From: an uncultured Taibaiella sp.
Lineage (GTDB): Bacteria; Bacteroidota; Bacteroidia; Chitinophagales; Chitinophagaceae
Assembly (NCBI GenBank): GCA_937870855.1
Contig: CALMWT010000120.1
Coordinates: forward strand, 1-39,309
Direction of reading: 5' to 3'
Length of the DNA stretch: 39,309 nucleotides
The position numbers were made by a program, and so were the translations under genes. The notes beneath the pieces are model-generated. The model ran no database searches. It saw nothing but the letters and a program-made list of their open reading frames with translations, and was not told the DNA's origin. Of the stretch, positions 1,055 to 7,494 are shown in pieces. Within the stretch, counting starts at the first letter, position 1. Each line of letters opens with the position of its first letter.

Positions 1055-2155
1055 ATGGACTTCAATTCAATTCCTGTTGTTGCTATAGCTATTTCTATTA
1101 TCATTTGCTGGTCGTTGTTTGCCTTGTTTTGCAGCTTTGTTCATGAGGCGCTAACGCAGATAAAAGCAGAAAGAGGCAGGTTCATGAAGACCTATCTCTT
1201 CAAGCAGTTTTACGATCAGCCAAACGGCGTTAACTGGGCAGCGATGCTCTACATGCACGGCAGTATAGATTTGCTAACCCGCGCCGTCAACAAACCTACA
1301 AGCGATATTGATTCCCGTCTTTTTGCAGAAACACTTATTGAGGTGGTTGGCAAAGCGCATATCACCCAAGTAAACAAAAATGATTTTGCAGAACAGCTTA
1401 CTTATAAAAGCCAATTGCTGAATGATTTTAAAGCAGCAACGCTTTCCCTACAGCAAAGTGATGTAGTTAATTTCTTTCAGCAGTCGTTGAACAGTGCTGA
1501 ACTCTGTAGATTATCGGACGGCACGCCCGACGAAGCAGCCATTTATAAATGCCTTGTAGATCAGATTGAGCGCTGGTACAATAAAATGATGGAGCGGCTT
1601 TCTCTTTGGTATAAGAAGAAGACAAAGTTGCGACTGTTTATGCTCGGAACCGTACTGGCAATTCTTGTAAACGTTGACAGCATCGCGTTATTCAAACATT
1701 TCACTGCGCAGCCTGCATCACGAAAGGCAATGATGAATTATTATGAGGCAAATGCGCAACGACTAACGGCGCTTGCCCATCGGGCAGAATCTTCGGACAG
1801 TGCAATCAATTACAGAAAGCAATTGGAAGCGCTTGCAATTGAAATGGATAGTGTGGCAAAATCGGCTGCGCTGCCAGTGGGTTGGGAGCATAATCTCTTC
1901 AATGCTCAAACCTGGAGAAAAGCTCGTGCTGAAAGCAGAGATTCCCCTCTTCTGTTTTCGTCTTCAGGCAGTGGTGTGAAAGGAATATTAATGGCAGTCT
2001 GGAGTTTCTTTTGCGGCATTGTTTGGTTGCTGTTGTTTTTCTTTTGCAAGCTTCCGGGTTTTGTGCTTTCAGGATTTGCGGCTAGTGCCGGCGCTCCGTT
2101 TTGGTTCGATGTATTGAAAAAGGCTTATTCCACTAAACCACAAAAAGCTTCCTGA
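1055..2155 (+). CDS. Uncharacterised multi-pass membrane protein (GAPFWFD family)
   Basis: A 366-residue protein. It has an N-terminal hydrophobic helix (about 6-29), a soluble middle part, a second transmembrane segment at about 192-213 preceded by ERLSLWYKKKTKLR, a second soluble stretch, and two hydrophobic segments at about 307-350 that run into SAGAPFWFDVLKK. The WYK(K/R)..LNVD and GAPFWFD signatures match, from memory, a widespread family of bacterial membrane proteins with no assigned function. It opens a co-directional cassette, and its TGA overlaps the ATG of the amidohydrolase by one base (TGATG), which suggests translational coupling. Its likely role, by inference, is an inner-membrane anchor or sensor for the enzymes that follow. 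Confidence 0.8.
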   Translation: MDFNSIPVVAIAISIIICWSLFALFCSFVHEALTQIKAERGRFMKTYLFKQFYDQPNGVNWAAMLYMHGSIDLLTRAVNKPTSDIDSRLFAETLIEVVGKAHITQVNKNDFAEQLTYKSQLLNDFKAATLSLQQSDVVNFFQQSLNSAELCRLSDGTPDEAAIYKCLVDQIERWYNKMMERLSLWYKKKTKLRLFMLGTVLAILVNVDSIALFKHFTAQPASRKAMMNYYEANAQRLTALAHRAESSDSAINYRKQLEALAIEMDSVAKSAALPVGWEHNLFNAQTWRKARAESRDSPLLFSSSGSGVKGILMAVWSFFCGIVWLLLFFFCKLPGFVLSGFAASAGAPFWFDVLKKAYSTKPQKAS

Positions 2156-3393
2156 TGCAGTTCTACAACGTACACACGCACATATTCACGATGAATAATG
2201 CGCCCCGCAGGTTTCTGGAATTGTACCTCCCGAAATGGGCTGCTCATAGTGTTGATAAGATTACAAATACACAGGTTGGTGCATGGTTGGTAAAGAAACT
2301 ACTTAATACGGTAGGTGGGCATGGTGGCAAGCGCTATGCAAGTTTTTTAGAAATTGGTAAAAGCAGCAGTCAAAACGATGTGTTTCGTCACCTGATAGAA
2401 AGCTATGAAGACAGTTCTATAAAGATGGTTGCGCTTACATTGTTTATGGAAAAGTTGGGTGCCGATGCCTCTATGTCGGGCTATGAAGGGCAGCTTGAAG
2501 AAATCATTGCATTGAAAAGACGTTATCCTGAACGGTTGCTTCCTTTTTTTTGTATAGATCCGCGCTGGAAAAATGATGGTGCCGCAATACTCGCTACAAC
2601 CCAGCGATATTTTGACAGGAAAATAAACGTGAGTGGAAAAGAATACAGTCCTTTTGCCGGTATAAAAATTTATCCCAGCACGGGTTTTTATCCGTTCGAT
2701 GCCAAGCTAATGCCCGTAATGGAATGGGCAGCTAAAAATGGAGTGCCGGTTATGACGCATTGCAGTTACCTCGGTGGCATTTTCAACAACGATGTTGATT
2801 TTGTGAAAGCTAGTCTGAATCCCTACGATCCTTACGACAGAGTTTACTACGACAAACCTTGCTACATCTCTGGCGATAAAAAAGCGAGGGTCAATAATCA
2901 ACGTTCGTGCAGTTACTTTCTGGAGCCACATGCCTACGAAAGCATGATCAGATATTTTGCCGAAAAAGGTACTCCTCTAAAAATTTGTTTTGCACATTTT
3001 GGAAGTGACAAACACATGTTGCTGGAGCATAAAAAAGATCAGACTCCTCAAAAATACTATGGCGTATTGGCTGATAAAAACTGGACGGCACAAATCAAAG
3101 ATCTAATGACACGATACCCGGAAGTGTACACCGATATTTCTTATTCGCTTACTAAACTTGAAACACACGATTTCATTTTTGAAGAACTGAGAAACGCCTA
3201 TTACGGAGATCGGATATTGTTTGGAACCGACTTCTTTATGACCGAGAGAGAAGAAAAGGAGCAAAAGACCTACACGCATTTTAAAAGCAGGGCGCTAAAG
3301 GAAAAAAACGTATCGGATGCAGGGAATGCCTGGGAAAAAATAGCGATGCTAAATCCAGAGCAGTTTTTGAAAAGCAATTATTACCAAACCTAA
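2155..3393 (+). CDS. Amidohydrolase-family metal-dependent hydrolase (TIM barrel)
   Basis: A 412-residue protein with the amidohydrolase layout. The metal-binding HxH on strand 1 is seen in YNVHTHIF (H7, H9). There is a Lys in GIKIYP (K171), a His in VMTHCSY (H202), a His in CFAHFGSD (H281) and the catalytic Asp in LFGTDFFM (D359). These fit the amidohydrolase_2 (PF04909-like) group, whose members hydrolyse or decarboxylate small cyclic or amide substrates. There is no signal peptide, so it is probably cytoplasmic. It is coupled to the upstream membrane protein by a one-base overlap and followed 14 bases later by an EEP-fold enzyme. The substrate cannot be told from the sequence. It is longer than minimal family members, with an insertion at about 205-255. 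Confidence 0.85.
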   Translation: MQFYNVHTHIFTMNNAPRRFLELYLPKWAAHSVDKITNTQVGAWLVKKLLNTVGGHGGKRYASFLEIGKSSSQNDVFRHLIESYEDSSIKMVALTLFMEKLGADASMSGYEGQLEEIIALKRRYPERLLPFFCIDPRWKNDGAAILATTQRYFDRKINVSGKEYSPFAGIKIYPSTGFYPFDAKLMPVMEWAAKNGVPVMTHCSYLGGIFNNDVDFVKASLNPYDPYDRVYYDKPCYISGDKKARVNNQRSCSYFLEPHAYESMIRYFAEKGTPLKICFAHFGSDKHMLLEHKKDQTPQKYYGVLADKNWTAQIKDLMTRYPEVYTDISYSLTKLETHDFIFEELRNAYYGDRILFGTDFFMTEREEKEQKTYTHFKSRALKEKNVSDAGNAWEKIAMLNPEQFLKSNYYQT

Positions 3394-3407
3394 AAAATAA
3401 AAAGCAA

Positions 3408-4328
3408 ATGATAGTTGCCACATTCAATTGCGAAAACCTTTTTGTCCGTTATCGTTTCAGCAGCAAGCTTGCAGAAGAAAAGAAAAATGAAGCTGTAGAT
3501 AAAGGTTTTATTATCGAACGTTCTCTTTTTGAAACTGTTCTTGAAGAAGAACGCAAGTTGACTGCGGGTGCAATTTTAGCCACAAAGGCCGATATCATCG
3601 CTTTGCAGGAAGTAGAAAACCTCGACACTTTAAAATCCTTTCAAAGTCGTTTCTTAAAAGCCAAGTTTCCCTTTAAATATTTGATAGATGGCAACGATAT
3701 GCGCCTGATAGATATTGCTGCATTAAGCAATATTGAAGCTACGAGTATTCGCACCCATCAATACGATAAGGGTAGTGATAAAAAGCAGATTTTCTCCCGC
3801 GATTGTTTGGAGATAGAATACAATGTGAACGGTGTGCCGCTTACACTTTTCATCAACCATTTTAAAAGCATGTTGGACAAGTCGGACCCTGCAAACGGAC
3901 GACAAAAAACTATGGCGAAACGCAGGCAGCAAAGCGAACAGGTGGTGCAGATAATTAAAGACAAATTCGGAAGCAAACTGGCAAAGGAAAATTTTATCGT
4001 GTTGGGCGATTTGAATGATTATTTACCAAGCACAGGTTTAAAGCCTTTGCTCGATCAGCCCTGGCTGGAAAATGTAGTACAAACCCGCCTGCCTGCTGAG
4101 GAGCAATGGACGCATTGGTGGAGTGATAAAAAGTCTGTTTCGCAGCTCGACTACATTTTGCTTTCCTCCCGTCTGGCAAAAAACAGTCCCGCAAAGCCTG
4201 TTATTATCCGTTGTGGTTTGGGAACGAATTGCACTCAGTTTACGGGCAAACGACTCGATGGAATTGGCAAGAAAAGTCCGGTAGCAAGCGATCATTGTCC
4301 GGTGGCAATGGAGGTAAACGTTAGGTAG
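3408..4328 (+). CDS. Endonuclease/exonuclease/phosphatase (EEP) family protein
   Basis: A 306-residue protein with the EEP (DNase I-like) motifs in order: ATFNCENLF (N7), IALQEVEN (metal-binding E68), FINHFKS (N150, catalytic H151), VLGDLND (D201, N203), SQLDYILLS (D248) and ASDHCPV (D295, H296). All residues expected for Mg-dependent phosphodiester or phosphomonoester hydrolysis are present. It has no signal peptide. The family includes nucleases, sphingomyelinases and inositol phosphatases, so the substrate is open. A basic region (KTMAKRRQQSEQVVQIIK) would suit nucleic acid but is not decisive. It is the third gene of the cassette, 14 bases after the amidohydrolase and 27 bases before the M15 peptidase. 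Confidence 0.88.
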   Translation: MIVATFNCENLFVRYRFSSKLAEEKKNEAVDKGFIIERSLFETVLEEERKLTAGAILATKADIIALQEVENLDTLKSFQSRFLKAKFPFKYLIDGNDMRLIDIAALSNIEATSIRTHQYDKGSDKKQIFSRDCLEIEYNVNGVPLTLFINHFKSMLDKSDPANGRQKTMAKRRQQSEQVVQIIKDKFGSKLAKENFIVLGDLNDYLPSTGLKPLLDQPWLENVVQTRLPAEEQWTHWWSDKKSVSQLDYILLSSRLAKNSPAKPVIIRCGLGTNCTQFTGKRLDGIGKKSPVASDHCPVAMEVNVR

Positions 4329-4355
4329 TTAGTCACACATAAAACACACACAGCT

Positions 4356-4964
4356 ATGAGTTATCAATTCTTAAAACAAGATCAGCTTTTCTACCAGAGG
4401 TTTCTAAAAAGTCACGGCTTTTATACAGGCAAGCTCGATGGCGTGTGGGGTCCAAAAACGGATGCCGCCGACAAAGCTTTTATGCAACACAGCCAGAATA
4501 TTGCGAAGCAAATTGGTTCGTTCGATCATCGAAGCGAATCAAACCTTATAACATTAGCGCCCAAAGTGCAGACCCTTGCCCGACAATTTTTGAAACTATG
4601 TCAGGATGCAAAACTTGATGTTCGTATTATATCCGGCACACGGACTTATGCAGAACAGGAAGCGCTCTTCAGAAAAGGACGCTATGGAAATACTGAAAAG
4701 CGGGTAACAAATGCGCGCGGTGGACAAAGCAACCACAACTTCGGTATTGCATGGGACATCGGTGTGTTTCAAGGAGGAAAATACCTCACTACGCTCAAGC
4801 CTTACAAAGACATTGCTACGCTTGTTATGCCCCATTTTCCCAACCTGGCGTGGGGCGGACACTGGATTTCATTTCCCGACTATCCGCATTACGAACACAA
4901 AGCCACGGTAGATGGTGTAGCGCATGTGAGAGGGCTTTTTGAAAACGGAAAAGTGTATGTGTAG
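4356..4964 (+). CDS. M15-family peptidoglycan peptidase with N-terminal PG-binding-like domain
   Basis: A 202-residue protein. Residues about 10-45 (FYTGKLDGVWGPKTDAADKAF) resemble a PG_binding_1 repeat. Residues about 85-180 are an M15 (VanY/endolysin L-alanyl-D-glutamate peptidase type) domain: SGTRTYAEQEALF, the zinc motif SNHNFGIAWDIG (H127, D134) and WGGHWISFPDYPHYE (third zinc ligand H178). It should cut peptide bonds in peptidoglycan stems. It lacks a recognisable signal peptide, as phage endolysins do, so export would need another route. It sits inside the cassette after the EEP enzyme. Family assignment is firm; biological role is not. Confidence 0.88.
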   Translation: MSYQFLKQDQLFYQRFLKSHGFYTGKLDGVWGPKTDAADKAFMQHSQNIAKQIGSFDHRSESNLITLAPKVQTLARQFLKLCQDAKLDVRIISGTRTYAEQEALFRKGRYGNTEKRVTNARGGQSNHNFGIAWDIGVFQGGKYLTTLKPYKDIATLVMPHFPNLAWGGHWISFPDYPHYEHKATVDGVAHVRGLFENGKVYV

Positions 4965-5039
4965 CAAATGAACAAGCAAGTTCCTCTTGGATAAAAAAGG
5001 AGAAACCATAACCATTTCATCATTCAACTTTAAACACCT

Positions 5040-5420
5040 ATGAAGGAAGTCTATTTTAACCCCAAAGGAGGAGCTATCGTTGCCTCTGCAAGATTTACTC
5101 ACTCCAAAGTAATGATCGCCAACTACAGTATGATGTTGCGGCTAAAAGACAGCAACGAAAGCACGATTCTGAAAGTAGGAGACAACACCAATGTAGAAGA
5201 CGATTGCGCTGCTTTGTCTCAGCCCGTTTCTTTAAATGATGGCCGAAGACTGATACTTGAAACAGGTTTTGTCGGTCAGGATTTTGCCAGCTATCCCCAA
5301 TACGATATTGTACTGGAATTGCATCAGGATGGTAACATACTTGGATATGCACATGAGTCGGGTGTGCTGACAGGCAAAGGACAGTATTCTCTATTATTCA
5401 TTAAACTTATTGCATCGTGA
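5040..5420 (+). CDS. Small hypothetical protein of the cassette
   Basis: A 126-residue protein that I do not recognise. It starts at an ATG 75 bases after the M15 peptidase and ends 4 bases before the likely start of the outer-membrane-like gene, so it is probably co-transcribed. Alternating polar and hydrophobic stretches (ARFTHSKVMIANYSMMLRLKD, PQYDIVLELHQDGNILG, QYSLLFIKLIAS) predict an all-beta fold, possibly a small sandwich. No signal peptide, lipobox or transmembrane helix is visible. It could be a ligand-binding, immunity or scaffold protein, but none of these is supported by a motif. Confidence 0.65.
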   Translation: MKEVYFNPKGGAIVASARFTHSKVMIANYSMMLRLKDSNESTILKVGDNTNVEDDCAALSQPVSLNDGRRLILETGFVGQDFASYPQYDIVLELHQDGNILGYAHESGVLTGKGQYSLLFIKLIAS

Positions 5421-5424
5421 GTCA

Positions 5425-6564
5425 ATGAAAAAAGCAGCCATCATATTGGTTAGCTTGCTCTCTTCTTTCATTGCAAAATCGCAAGGCAGAGATTCTGTAA
5501 TGCTTGGCATGTTGCGGCTCAATTTTGTTGTGCCCGACATGCCAGCTTTCAAAGCGATGGGCACTGATCCTTCGGCCATTCTTCGACCTTCCACAGCGCA
5601 AGCTTTTGCCGTATCTGTTTCTGAGTTTTATCAAAATGGTCAGTTTGCACTACCCACAGATTTTGCCATGGAACTTACTCCTTCATTGCTTTTAAATGCA
5701 ACGCGGCCTATTGAAAATGTAATCCGGTCGTATAGTAAAGCGCAGTGGCTGAAAACTTTTCGGGTTTCGATAGGCACGGCTGCTAATAGAGCTCCTCATT
5801 TGGGACGAAGCATGGCAATTGGTTTGAGAAGCAACCTCATCAACAAAGGAGACATGACAACTGATAAAGCCTATCTGCAAAATGTAGTGATGGCTCTTGG
5901 CGATTTTAGAATGGCTTCAAGAAAAGCACTTGCAACATTTGCCCACCAACATGGTATTGATACCAATAAGGTTGACTATGAATTTAGAATTATGTCGAAC
6001 CCTGTTTTGAAAACCAAATTCGATGATTTGCTTTTTGATATGGAAGCGCAACGGGTTTTTATGGCAAAGCTTGACTCTTTGAAACAAGATTATAAACTAC
6101 GCAATTGGAATGCGCAAAAGCTGGATGTAGCTTTTGCTGTGGTAGGATCGGGGGGCGATTCGCTTCTGAAAAATGTGCAGTTAAACAAGTATGCCTTTTG
6201 GATGACATGGGCGCTTAGGGCAGGAAAATCAGGACAGGTATTGTTGGGCATAAATGCTGAAGCTCGCCGCGATAATTTTGTAGTGAAAAAGCAAAATGAA
6301 TTTTACACCACAGTTTCACTGCCGTTACGTTACATGAGTGGTTCCAATAGATTGAAAGGATATGCAGAATTGCAGTACCAATATGTAGGGATCGAAAGAA
6401 GTCATTACTCTTTTCTAAGCCTCGGTGCCGAGGTAAATCCTTACGATGGTTTTTGGGTAAGCATGTATGGAGGCATTAATCACAATTACACAAATGCAGG
6501 TACAAGTTTTGTTACCAACCTCAACTTAAAGATTACCTTGCCTGAAAGCTTTAAGCTCTTTTGA
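5425..6564 (+). CDS. Secreted, probably outer-membrane beta-barrel protein, function unknown
   Basis: A 379-residue protein. I chose the ATG at 5425 because it opens a standard signal peptide (MKKAAIILVSLLSSFIAKSQG) and lies 4 bases after the previous stop; an upstream TTG at 5410 only adds MHRES. The C-terminal third has strands of the outer-membrane type (GQVLLGINAEAR, GYAELQYQYVGIE, FWVSMYGGINHNY, SFVTNLNLKI), and the protein ends in Phe, as outer-membrane barrels often do. It is the last gene of the cassette, followed by a convergent glycosyltransferase. It may place cassette activity at the cell surface, but this is inference from context. Confidence 0.7.
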   Translation: MKKAAIILVSLLSSFIAKSQGRDSVMLGMLRLNFVVPDMPAFKAMGTDPSAILRPSTAQAFAVSVSEFYQNGQFALPTDFAMELTPSLLLNATRPIENVIRSYSKAQWLKTFRVSIGTAANRAPHLGRSMAIGLRSNLINKGDMTTDKAYLQNVVMALGDFRMASRKALATFAHQHGIDTNKVDYEFRIMSNPVLKTKFDDLLFDMEAQRVFMAKLDSLKQDYKLRNWNAQKLDVAFAVVGSGGDSLLKNVQLNKYAFWMTWALRAGKSGQVLLGINAEARRDNFVVKKQNEFYTTVSLPLRYMSGSNRLKGYAELQYQYVGIERSHYSFLSLGAEVNPYDGFWVSMYGGINHNYTNAGTSFVTNLNLKITLPESFKLF

Positions 6565-6593: not shown

Positions 6594-7370
6594 TCAAAAA
6601 TTGATTCCTTCCTTTTTCAGACGGCTATAATGTCTTGTCTTTGCATATTTTATGAACGAAGCAAATGCGTTGTTTTTGCAGACAATAAATCCAAACTCTC
6701 CGTCAAGAAAACCCAGCTTAAAAATCAGATCATTTAAGAATTGAAGCGGCGGTGCCACTACCATTTTCAGGAAACTTACTTTCTTTCCTCGTGCTACATC
6801 TGCTCGCGCACTTATTTCTGTATAATGCTCAATTTTCCGAAGGTGATCTGAAATGCTGTCGTAGCTATAGTGCAGCAAATCTCCTTTCAACCGACCAATC
6901 TTTTCATTTTTATCGTGTAGTTCTATGCCTTCATGCACTTTGTCGTTCAGCATCGCACCTTTTTCTTTATTCCAAAGACGAAGCTTGGGTTGCGGGTACC
7001 ACCCACAGTGCCTGATCCATTTGCCGCAATAGTTGGGAAGAATATCCACTTTATAAGCATTGAATTTCGGATTAGTTTTTATAAACAAAATGCTCTCGGC
7101 AAGTTTAGGAGACACTACCTCATCTGCATCAATTGAAAGTACCCATTGGTGCGAAGCTTGTTGCTGTGCAAAAAACTTTTGATCTCCATAACCGAGAAAT
7201 TTTCGCTGCATCACTTTTGCGCCGAGATGGGTTGCGATGTCCACGGTTTTGTCGGTCGAAAAGCTATCTATTACTACTACTTCATCTGCCACTTTCCTCA
7301 CTGCTTCTATGCAACGGGCAATGTTCTTTTCCTCATTGTAAGTAATGATGCAGGCAGAAATTGAGATCAT
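6594..7370 (-). CDS. Glycosyltransferase family 2 (LPS core WaaE/KdtX-like)
   Basis: A 258-residue protein with a GT-A fold. The N-terminal nucleotide-sugar site is ISACIITYNEEKNIARC, followed by VVVIDSFSTDKT and the DxD-type LSIDADEVV at about 78-86. Later motifs (WYPQPKLRLWNK, VHEGIELH) match the beta-glucosyltransferases of the LPS core WaaE/KdtX type. It probably adds a sugar to a cell-surface glycolipid or polysaccharide on the cytoplasmic face. It is convergent with the cassette and divergent from ffh, with 124 bases to the ffh start, so it is likely monocistronic. Confidence 0.88.
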   Translation of the reverse strand: MISISACIITYNEEKNIARCIEAVRKVADEVVVIDSFSTDKTVDIATHLGAKVMQRKFLGYGDQKFFAQQQASHQWVLSIDADEVVSPKLAESILFIKTNPKFNAYKVDILPNYCGKWIRHCGWYPQPKLRLWNKEKGAMLNDKVHEGIELHDKNEKIGRLKGDLLHYSYDSISDHLRKIEHYTEISARADVARGKKVSFLKMVVAPPLQFLNDLIFKLGFLDGEFGFIVCKNNAFASFIKYAKTRHYSRLKKEGINF

Positions 7371-7494
7371 ATAAAAGGTGGCTTGTGCAAAGAAACGGAG
7401 CGTTCCAAAATTAGCAATAAACCAATCCCACCAAAGTAGGGCTGCGTAGTTGTTTGAATTAAATTAAATTTGCGCTTCTTTTTAAGATAGGAAT

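What the first reader, a model, noticed from the sequence alone, without database searches (positions are those of the whole stretch)
1055..6564. Undescribed six-gene cassette of three different hydrolases bracketed by inner- and outer-membrane proteins
Six genes run in one direction with overlap or short gaps (-1, 14, 27, 75 and 4 bases): GAPFWFD membrane protein, amidohydrolase, EEP enzyme, M15 peptidase, orphan beta protein, outer-membrane-like protein. All expected catalytic residues of the three enzymes are visible. I know of no described pathway with this set, and a tyrosine recombinase lies directly upstream. It could be an antagonism, defence or envelope-salvage system; this is inference.
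Basis: partly seen in the sequence, partly recalled or inferred. Interest (0 to 1): 0.65.

Follow-up and report, generated by a model that had tools for sequence, protein, structure and literature searches.

The report
Membrane hub with swappable hydrolases
The six genes look like one version of an unnamed bacterial gene module in which a membrane protein of an uncatalogued family sits beside interchangeable enzymes that break down cell wall, fat, protein or DNA; if confirmed, it would be a new kind of cell-killing or cell-lysis device.

Summary
In detail: six same-strand genes (1055-6564) with the stated spacing and intact catalytic motifs. Gene 1 belongs to a widespread three-TM membrane family ("hub", motif GAPFWFD) with no Pfam or NCBIfam model, no PDB sequence relative and no clear PDB fold match. 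In other genomes its next genes are an interchangeable set of hydrolases, almost all without signal peptides: amidohydrolase, subtilase, peptidoglycan amidases and lysozymes, M15, M19, Tle1 and patatin lipases, nucleases, a deaminase. Distant genes from the same loci lack this pattern. Hub plus this amidohydrolase recurs in nine loci including the window. In Bacteroidota the operons often end with a signal-peptide-bearing protein; the window's own pair (small protein, gene 6 type) recurs. The exact six-gene set was found nowhere else. Hub-bearing relatives carry an eCIS (contractile injection) marker more often (10/19 versus 7/80), but hubs rarely lie beside eCIS and the window's genome has none. 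T6SS, eCIS, phage-lysis, known-defence and T9SS membership is not met or inconclusive. Best reading: a modular envelope-breach or killing device (mechanism confidence about 0.4); that the module is real is much firmer. Function is untested.

The parts
1055..2155 (+). Gene 1, 'hub': 366-aa inner-membrane protein of an uncatalogued family; TM segments about 4-29, 192-214, 305-345; GAPFWFD at residues 346-352; predicted N-out, C-in
   Evidence: ORF; hydropathy and charges; family alignments; AF2 model pLDDT 86, pTM 0.79; window hub without Pfam/NCBIfam match, no convincing one in 52 members; no PDB sequence match; no Foldseek E <= 0.001
2155..3393 (+). Gene 2: leaderless Amidohydro_2 enzyme with complete metal-site set (HxH 7/9, K171, H202, H281, D359)
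   Evidence: Pfam 2.5e-17; invariant columns in 10 sequences; directly next to a hub in 8 other loci
3408..4328 (+). Gene 3: leaderless endonuclease/exonuclease/phosphatase-family enzyme, nuclease-like
   Evidence: PF03372 1.5e-10, PF19580 2e-10; partial ExeM/NucH DNase model 4.3e-16, below its cut-off; motifs NCENL, LQEVEN, NHFKS, GDLND, LDYIL, SDHCPV present
4356..4964 (+). Gene 4: leaderless M15 peptidoglycan peptidase with an N-terminal peptidoglycan-binding-like stretch
   Evidence: VanY 1.3e-10, Peptidase_M15_4 3.5e-10, PG_binding_1 0.0015 (below cut-off); SNHNFGIAWD and PHYEH; related M15 next to the hub in L076
5040..5420 (+). Gene 5: small protein (126 aa), read by eye as beta-rich, partner of gene 6
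   Evidence: No family; relative upstream of a gene-6 homologue in L131 (6.9e-5); small proteins in the same place in L041, L132, L144, L137, low similarity
5425..6564 (+). Gene 6: signal-peptide-bearing protein, possibly outer-membrane (not established)
   Evidence: Relatives in 7 of 99 related genomes, own included; N-terminal hydrophobic leader; alignment; single-sequence AF2 failed, pLDDT 37

Best explanation
The cassette is one instance of an undescribed modular operon type. Constant part: a three-TM inner-membrane hub with helical soluble parts. Variable part: one or more hydrolases, mostly without signal peptides, aimed at the cell's polymers; here an amidohydrolase, a nuclease-like EEP enzyme and an endolysin-type M15 peptidase. 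Bacteroidota often add a small protein and an exported, possibly outer-membrane protein. Proposed mechanism: the enzymes are stored in the cytoplasm, docked on the hub; on a trigger the hub lets them into the envelope, and with the exported protein the cell envelope is breached. The result is lysis of the producer, releasing its contents (in many genomes possibly eCIS particles), or discharge of hydrolases on neighbours. Shown: recurrence, cargo swapping, missing signal peptides, genome-level eCIS co-occurrence. Inferred: docking, opening, breach, killing.
For: Cargo swapping: in 64 tight downstream neighbours Pfam finds S8 in 9, Amidohydro_2 in 9, Amidase_2 in 3, GH25 2, M15 2, M19 2, Tle1-like 1, Endonuclease I 1, deaminase 1; in 64 distant control genes S8 and Amidohydro_2 occur in at most one each (18/64 v at most 2/64, p = 1.3e-4). 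Annotation on plasmids agrees: hub - amidase - trypsin/S8 - M19-like (Hymenobacter), hub - amidase (Caballeronia), haloperoxidase then hub (Rhizobium, Agrobacterium; Paracoccus with two small genes between), patatin - hub (Rhizobium). A hub with a fused trypsin-like domain exists (L034, by eye). Hub and the eCIS marker co-occur: 10/19 v 7/80, p = 5.8e-5, size-stratified p = 0.0023; Cas1 control p = 0.30; 24 of 50 hub-bearing genomes have the marker. In L143 and L107 the hub heads an eCIS-like operon. No immunity gene is evident by eye, as fits lysis.
Against: 54 of 102 hubs have no tight downstream gene, so many may act alone. The exact six-gene set was found nowhere else. Hub is absent from 40 stretches of up to 20 kb around eCIS markers, so the eCIS link is mostly genome-level and may reflect lifestyle; the window's genome has no Pvc16_N or VipB. 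Hub operons with peptidoglycan hydrolases are not significantly more eCIS-positive (5/6 v 5/13, p = 0.14; typed by hand). Hub/amidohydrolase co-divergence is inconclusive: r = 0.40, p = 0.02, but r = 0.16, p = 0.29 without L138. Amidohydrolase relatives occur without a hub beside a patatin (L007, L183). Endonuclease I in L060 seems, by eye, to have a leader. No docking, opening or lysis was tested.
Confidence: 0.4

Rival explanations
1. Antagonism: the hydrolases are effectors delivered into neighbouring cells, by eCIS where present or by an unknown route, and the hub is a membrane docking or loading factor, working like CisA of Streptomyces CIS.
For: The repertoire (Tle1, patatin, GH19, amidases, nucleases, deaminase) is that of antibacterial effectors (families; that these are usual effectors is recalled). 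Genome-level eCIS association and two cis links. Passages of PMC12237407 describe a CIS membrane adaptor; passages of PMC8213781 describe eCIS-associated toxins incl. peptidoglycan hydrolysis.
Against: No immunity genes recognised. The window's genome lacks Pvc16_N and VipB. No hub within 40 eCIS stretches.
Confidence: 0.2
2. Envelope or nutrient salvage: the enzymes degrade peptidoglycan fragments, nucleic acids and amides for reuse, and the hub is a scaffold or importer.
For: M19-like dipeptidase, amidohydrolase and amidase could process wall fragments (families); cytoplasmic recycling enzymes are leaderless (recalled).
Against: Cargo also includes subtilases, Tle1-like lipase, DNase II, deaminase and lysozymes/amidases with SH3 or peptidoglycan-binding domains, which suit intact wall. 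No transporter in the cassette.
Confidence: 0.15
3. Defence: the hub senses phage or membrane damage and activates a hydrolase that kills the infected cell.
For: Constant membrane part with swappable effectors; patatins, nucleases and proteases are usual abortive-infection effectors (recalled); patchy distribution (19 of 99 relatives), variable locus beside an integrase, plasmid copies.
Against: PADLOC: none of the six proteins; hub only 1 of 52 members weakly ZorA-like, 0.002. Peptidoglycan hydrolases are unusual defence effectors (recalled).
Confidence: 0.12
4. The hub has its own membrane role and the neighbouring hydrolases are convenient but functionally separate operon partners.
For: 54 of 102 hubs have no tight downstream gene.
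Against: The neighbour set is strongly non-random and recurs across distant phyla and plasmids; hub-protease fusion in L034.
Confidence: 0.13

Closest known systems
Holin-endolysin-spanin lysis cassettes (phages, R-tailocins) and holin-dependent (type 10) secretion
   Same: Inner-membrane protein, leaderless peptidoglycan hydrolase and exported envelope protein in one operon; M15, GH19, GH25, CHAP and Amidase_2 are also endolysin folds (recalled)
   Different: Hub has no holin model match and a large soluble part; no hub in 50,697 phage records and one locus in IMG/VR; cargo includes subtilases, lipases, nucleases and the amidohydrolase
eCIS / cytoplasmic CIS with membrane adaptor CisA
   Same: Membrane protein linked to contractile systems; peptidoglycan-hydrolase and other toxins; cell death (passages of PMC12237407 and PMC8213781)
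   Different: Window genome lacks the eCIS marker; CisA is described as bitopic with a solute-binding-like domain, unlike the three-TM helical hub; hub rarely next to eCIS
T6SS effector modules (Tle1, GH19, amidase, patatin effectors)
   Same: Same enzyme families (effector use recalled)
   Different: No VipB in 99 relatives; no such apparatus gene in the cassette
Zorya ZorA (MotA/ExbB/TolQ)
   Same: Three TM helices with a large cytoplasmic part (recalled for ZorA relatives); weak hit of 1 of 52 hubs (0.002)
   Different: No partner motor subunit or other Zorya gene in the cassette; 51 of 52 hubs do not match

Membership tests
Type VI secretion system | Contractile sheath TssB/TssC in the genome | tested here: not met
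   PF05943 VipB: 0 of 99 relatives incl. own genome; control rings in E. coli. Divergent Bacteroidota T6SSiii sheaths could be missed.
eCIS | eCIS marker Pvc16_N (PF14065) in the same genome | tested here: not met
   Absent from G000; present in 10 of 19 hub-bearing relatives
eCIS | Hub within eCIS loci | tested here: inconclusive
   Two cis cases L107, L143; none in 40 fetched eCIS stretches
Phage lysis cassette | Occurs in phages or prophages | tested here: not met
   Hub: no match in 50,697 phage records; 1 locus in 2.9 million viral contigs
Phage lysis cassette / holin secretion | Holin family membrane protein | tested here: inconclusive
   No Pfam or NCBIfam holin model matches the hub family; holins are diverse
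Phage lysis cassette / holin secretion | Membrane protein permits passage of leaderless hydrolases | not testable with these tools
   Needs expression experiments
Known anti-phage defence system | Match to a described defence protein set | tested here: not met
   PADLOC: 0 families for all six proteins at E <= 1
Zorya (ZorA) | ZorA profile match | tested here: inconclusive
   1 of 52 hubs at 0.002, window hub none
T9SS cargo | N-terminal signal peptide on the cargo | tested here: not met
   Window genes 2-4 lack a hydrophobic leader; simple hydropathy test
GAPFWFD hub family | Profile match and conserved C-terminal GAPFWF(D) motif | tested here: met
   Window hub in alignments A1, A2, A4; it was one of the rows from which the profile was built. 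Independent: L143 hub finds it by single-sequence search at 7.4e-18

The most novel reading that the evidence does not exclude
The GAPFWFD hub is the core of a new envelope-crossing machine: a conduit or gate in the inner membrane that, with an outer-membrane partner in Bacteroidota, lets folded leaderless hydrolases out of the cytoplasm, as a dedicated secretion or explosive-lysis system found across many phyla and often kept by bacteria that also make contractile injection particles.
Probability: 0.27. Interest if true: 0.92.

Novelty: categorically new. Interest (0 to 1): 0.7.

Why it matters
A membrane protein family conserved from Bacteroidota to Pseudomonadota, Acidobacteriota and Cyanobacteriota, yet without any family model, repeatedly travels with enzymes that destroy wall, lipid, protein and DNA. 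If it is a gate or dock for these enzymes it would be an unrecognised way for bacteria to lyse themselves or attack others, and could bear on how eCIS particles leave their producer cells. The hub motif and the operon pattern make it searchable and testable now. The rating 'categorically new' rests on failed membership tests and limited literature searches, not on a shown mechanism; if the hub proves to be an eCIS accessory, it would drop to a new variant of a known kind.

Tried and rejected
Fold search with the hub model: no Foldseek match with E <= 0.001; the VIA second look of 985 chains gave no Z >= 5 (best 4.9, 7jzk_D, 110 residues, rmsd 5.1). Not evidence of a new fold.

Gene 6 structure without an alignment failed (pLDDT 37). 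Gene-6-type and c4-type end proteins do not align as profiles (3% probability, only the leader), so they are treated as two families. DUF1842 as identity of gene 5: only L041's small protein hits it, at 0.059; not adopted.

Co-divergence of hub and amidohydrolase: inconclusive. eCIS as the machine of this cassette: rejected for the window's genome. Peptidoglycan-hydrolase cargo v eCIS: not significant. Promoter and terminator scan: no more sites than in shuffles, so single transcription is unproven. Solved-structure search with the amidohydrolase: one weak hit, 3irs, 8.6e-4; no substrate inferred.

Method limits: genes were called as longest ORFs, poor in GC-rich genomes, and several fetched loci had no hub among the called ORFs (88 anchors). 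L043 and L066 were dropped as duplicates. Of 71 tight neighbours I gave 64 to Pfam, leaving out seven c4-type end proteins (L031's has no Pfam family); of 92 control genes I gave 64, picked by hand, mostly from the front of the list. The Fisher comparison of 24/50 with 7/80 is not matched for taxonomy. Of 30 listed matches I fetched 27; of 10 hub- and eCIS-positive relatives, 7; and 6 hub-negative ones. Alignments and the structure job for gene 6 lack the initial Met. Papers: for PMC8213781, PMC11297309, PMC12237407, PMC10598620, PMC12114271, PMC10994174 I saw term-search passages only; all others as search listings with abstract starts.
Full report
WHAT IS THERE. Genes 2, 3 and 4 are an Amidohydro_2 enzyme, an endonuclease/exonuclease/phosphatase-family enzyme and an M15 peptidase. 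Their expected active-site motifs are present (motif knowledge recalled). Genes 1, 5 and 6 match no Pfam or NCBIfam family over a cut-off and none of the six a PADLOC model. The integrase upstream (Phage_integrase 4.8e-20) is divergent and cut by the contig end.

THE HUB FAMILY. Gene 1 belongs to a family with three hydrophobic segments, a positive stretch after TM1 and before TM2, and the C-terminal motif GAPFWFD, which suggests N-out, C-in. It is in 22 of 296 genomes of the phylum (E <= 1e-10) and 19 of 99 relatives, in none of the six other genomes of the genus there. None of 52 members has a convincing Pfam or NCBIfam match, and the profile finds no PDB sequence relative. The AF2 model is good (pLDDT 86, pTM 0.79) without a clear PDB match. 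One member (L044) finds nothing in 50,697 phage records.

THE CARGO. In the loci read, the genes tightly downstream of the hub are an interchangeable set of hydrolases. Among 102 hubs, 48 have a same-strand gene within 60 bases; for nine of these 48 it is the amidohydrolase: L005, L006, L056, L062, L084, L085, L112, L138 and the window. In L138 the amidohydrolase is close to the window's (6.6e-119). A Pfam tally of 64 such neighbours (first and second genes) gives S8 9, Amidohydro_2 9, Amidase_2 3, GH25 2, M15 2, M19 2 and single Tle1-like, Endonuclease I, DUF900 and deaminase proteins; 64 distant genes give none of these among families with two or more members. Individually typed neighbours, some of them less tightly spaced or upstream, add GH19, CHAP, patatin, DNase II, PAP2/haloperoxidase-like and GH108. 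Plasmid annotation agrees without my gene calls: Hymenobacter hub - amidase - S8 (with trypsin domain) - M19-like protein (the last by eye); Caballeronia hub - amidase - peptidoglycan-binding protein; haloperoxidase then hub in Rhizobium rosettiformans, Agrobacterium and, with two small genes between, Paracoccus; Rhizobium patatin - hub and cell-wall hydrolase - hub - metallophosphoesterase; Vitreoscilla and Nostoc show no such direct partner. I looked at 8 of the 12 plasmid hits. Against: 54 of 102 hubs have no tight downstream gene.

THE ENVELOPE PARTNERS. Many Bacteroidota operons end with a signal-peptide protein: a c4-type protein, mostly after S8 (ten loci), or a gene-6-type protein. The latter is preceded by a small protein in the window, L041, L131, L132, L144 and L137 (assigned largely by position; similarity is low); L131 and L132 show no hub in the stretch fetched, and in L133, L134 the gene-6 type stands without small protein or hub. 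In L144 hub, small protein and gene-6 type stand alone; in L135 gene-6 type, GH108, another exported protein and hub are consecutive. A simple hydropathy test separates cargo (one haloperoxidase excepted) from the end proteins. The outer-membrane location is not established.

LINK TO CONTRACTILE SYSTEMS. In L143 the hub is the first gene before Pvc16-like, sheath, tube, VgrG-like and PAAR-like genes (names by eye), and in L107 (Pinibacter aurantiacus) hub - Amidase_2 - Pvc16-like follow each other. In 99 relatives the eCIS marker is in 10 of 19 hub-bearing and 7 of 80 other genomes (p = 5.8e-5; 0.0023 when permuted within genome-size classes), while Cas1 shows no association (10/19 v 30/80, p = 0.30). 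Of 50 hub-bearing genomes from the contig scan (50 of the 78 left after duplicates, in rank order) 24 carry the marker. But 40 stretches around eCIS markers contain no hub (the search itself was checked), one further hub (L054) lies about 14 kb from the marker on what appears to be the same contig, judged by equal contig length, and the window's genome has no marker at all. The association holds at genome level in this sample but may reflect shared lifestyle; phylogeny was not corrected for.

MOBILITY. DNA similarity to congeners starts just before ffh (position 7465) in all four congeners compared, and none has the cassette there, so it sits at a variable place next to an integrase; mobility is inferred.

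MECHANISM. The parts map on three envelope layers: hub in the inner membrane, wall hydrolase (gene 4), exported end protein (gene 6). That is the logic of holin-endolysin-spanin lysis as described for tailocin release (passages of PMC10598620), but with an unrelated membrane protein and a wider enzyme set. Cytoplasmic storage of wall hydrolases without evident immunity genes fits triggered lysis better than constitutive secretion; nucleases and lipases would help to dismantle the cell or poison neighbours. All of this beyond the gene content is inference; I give it 0.4. Delivered antagonism, salvage, defence and mere co-location are the rivals.

NOVELTY. Text searches found no description: 'GAPFWFD' anywhere, 0 papers; combined-term searches 0, 2 unrelated and 0 papers. 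The library holds open-licence PMC papers only. Membership in T6SS, eCIS, phage lysis cassettes, PADLOC defence systems and T9SS cargo was tested and not met, with the caveats in the table; hence 'categorically new', conditional on the module being confirmed.

Noticed in passing
L107:7001-8176, L151:6001-7194, L152:6001-7272: Hubs followed by Amidase_2 end in a shared tail resembling 'C(E/D)V...(D)(E/N)(D/H/E)LP...GGV', like a double-glycine leader motif (recalled); function unknown.
   Followed up: partly
L034:7148-9478: Hub with a C-terminal trypsin-like domain (recognised by eye), implying hub and enzyme act in one place.
   Followed up: partly
L033, L038, L136, L139 hub C-termini: Hubs with GH19/S8 cargo end in the same '(E/P)EAVG' after a low-complexity linker.
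   Followed up: no
L007:6916-9923 and L183:6516-9454: Relatives of the amidohydrolase paired with a patatin, without a hub.
   Followed up: partly
L031, L034, L036, L038, L040, L052, L079, L136, L139, L147: A strongly conserved exported protein family of 640-900 aa ('DVT..ADGLAKFLV.RT.EEL') in hub operons; no PDB relative beyond one weak hit.
   Followed up: partly
L116, L119 and plasmids L153, L156, L157: Haloperoxidase/PAP2-type protein upstream of the hub in Nitrosomonas and Alphaproteobacteria.
   Followed up: no
window 6594-7370: Glycosyltransferase family 2 gene, convergent with gene 6, also absent upstream of ffh in the four congeners compared.
   Followed up: no
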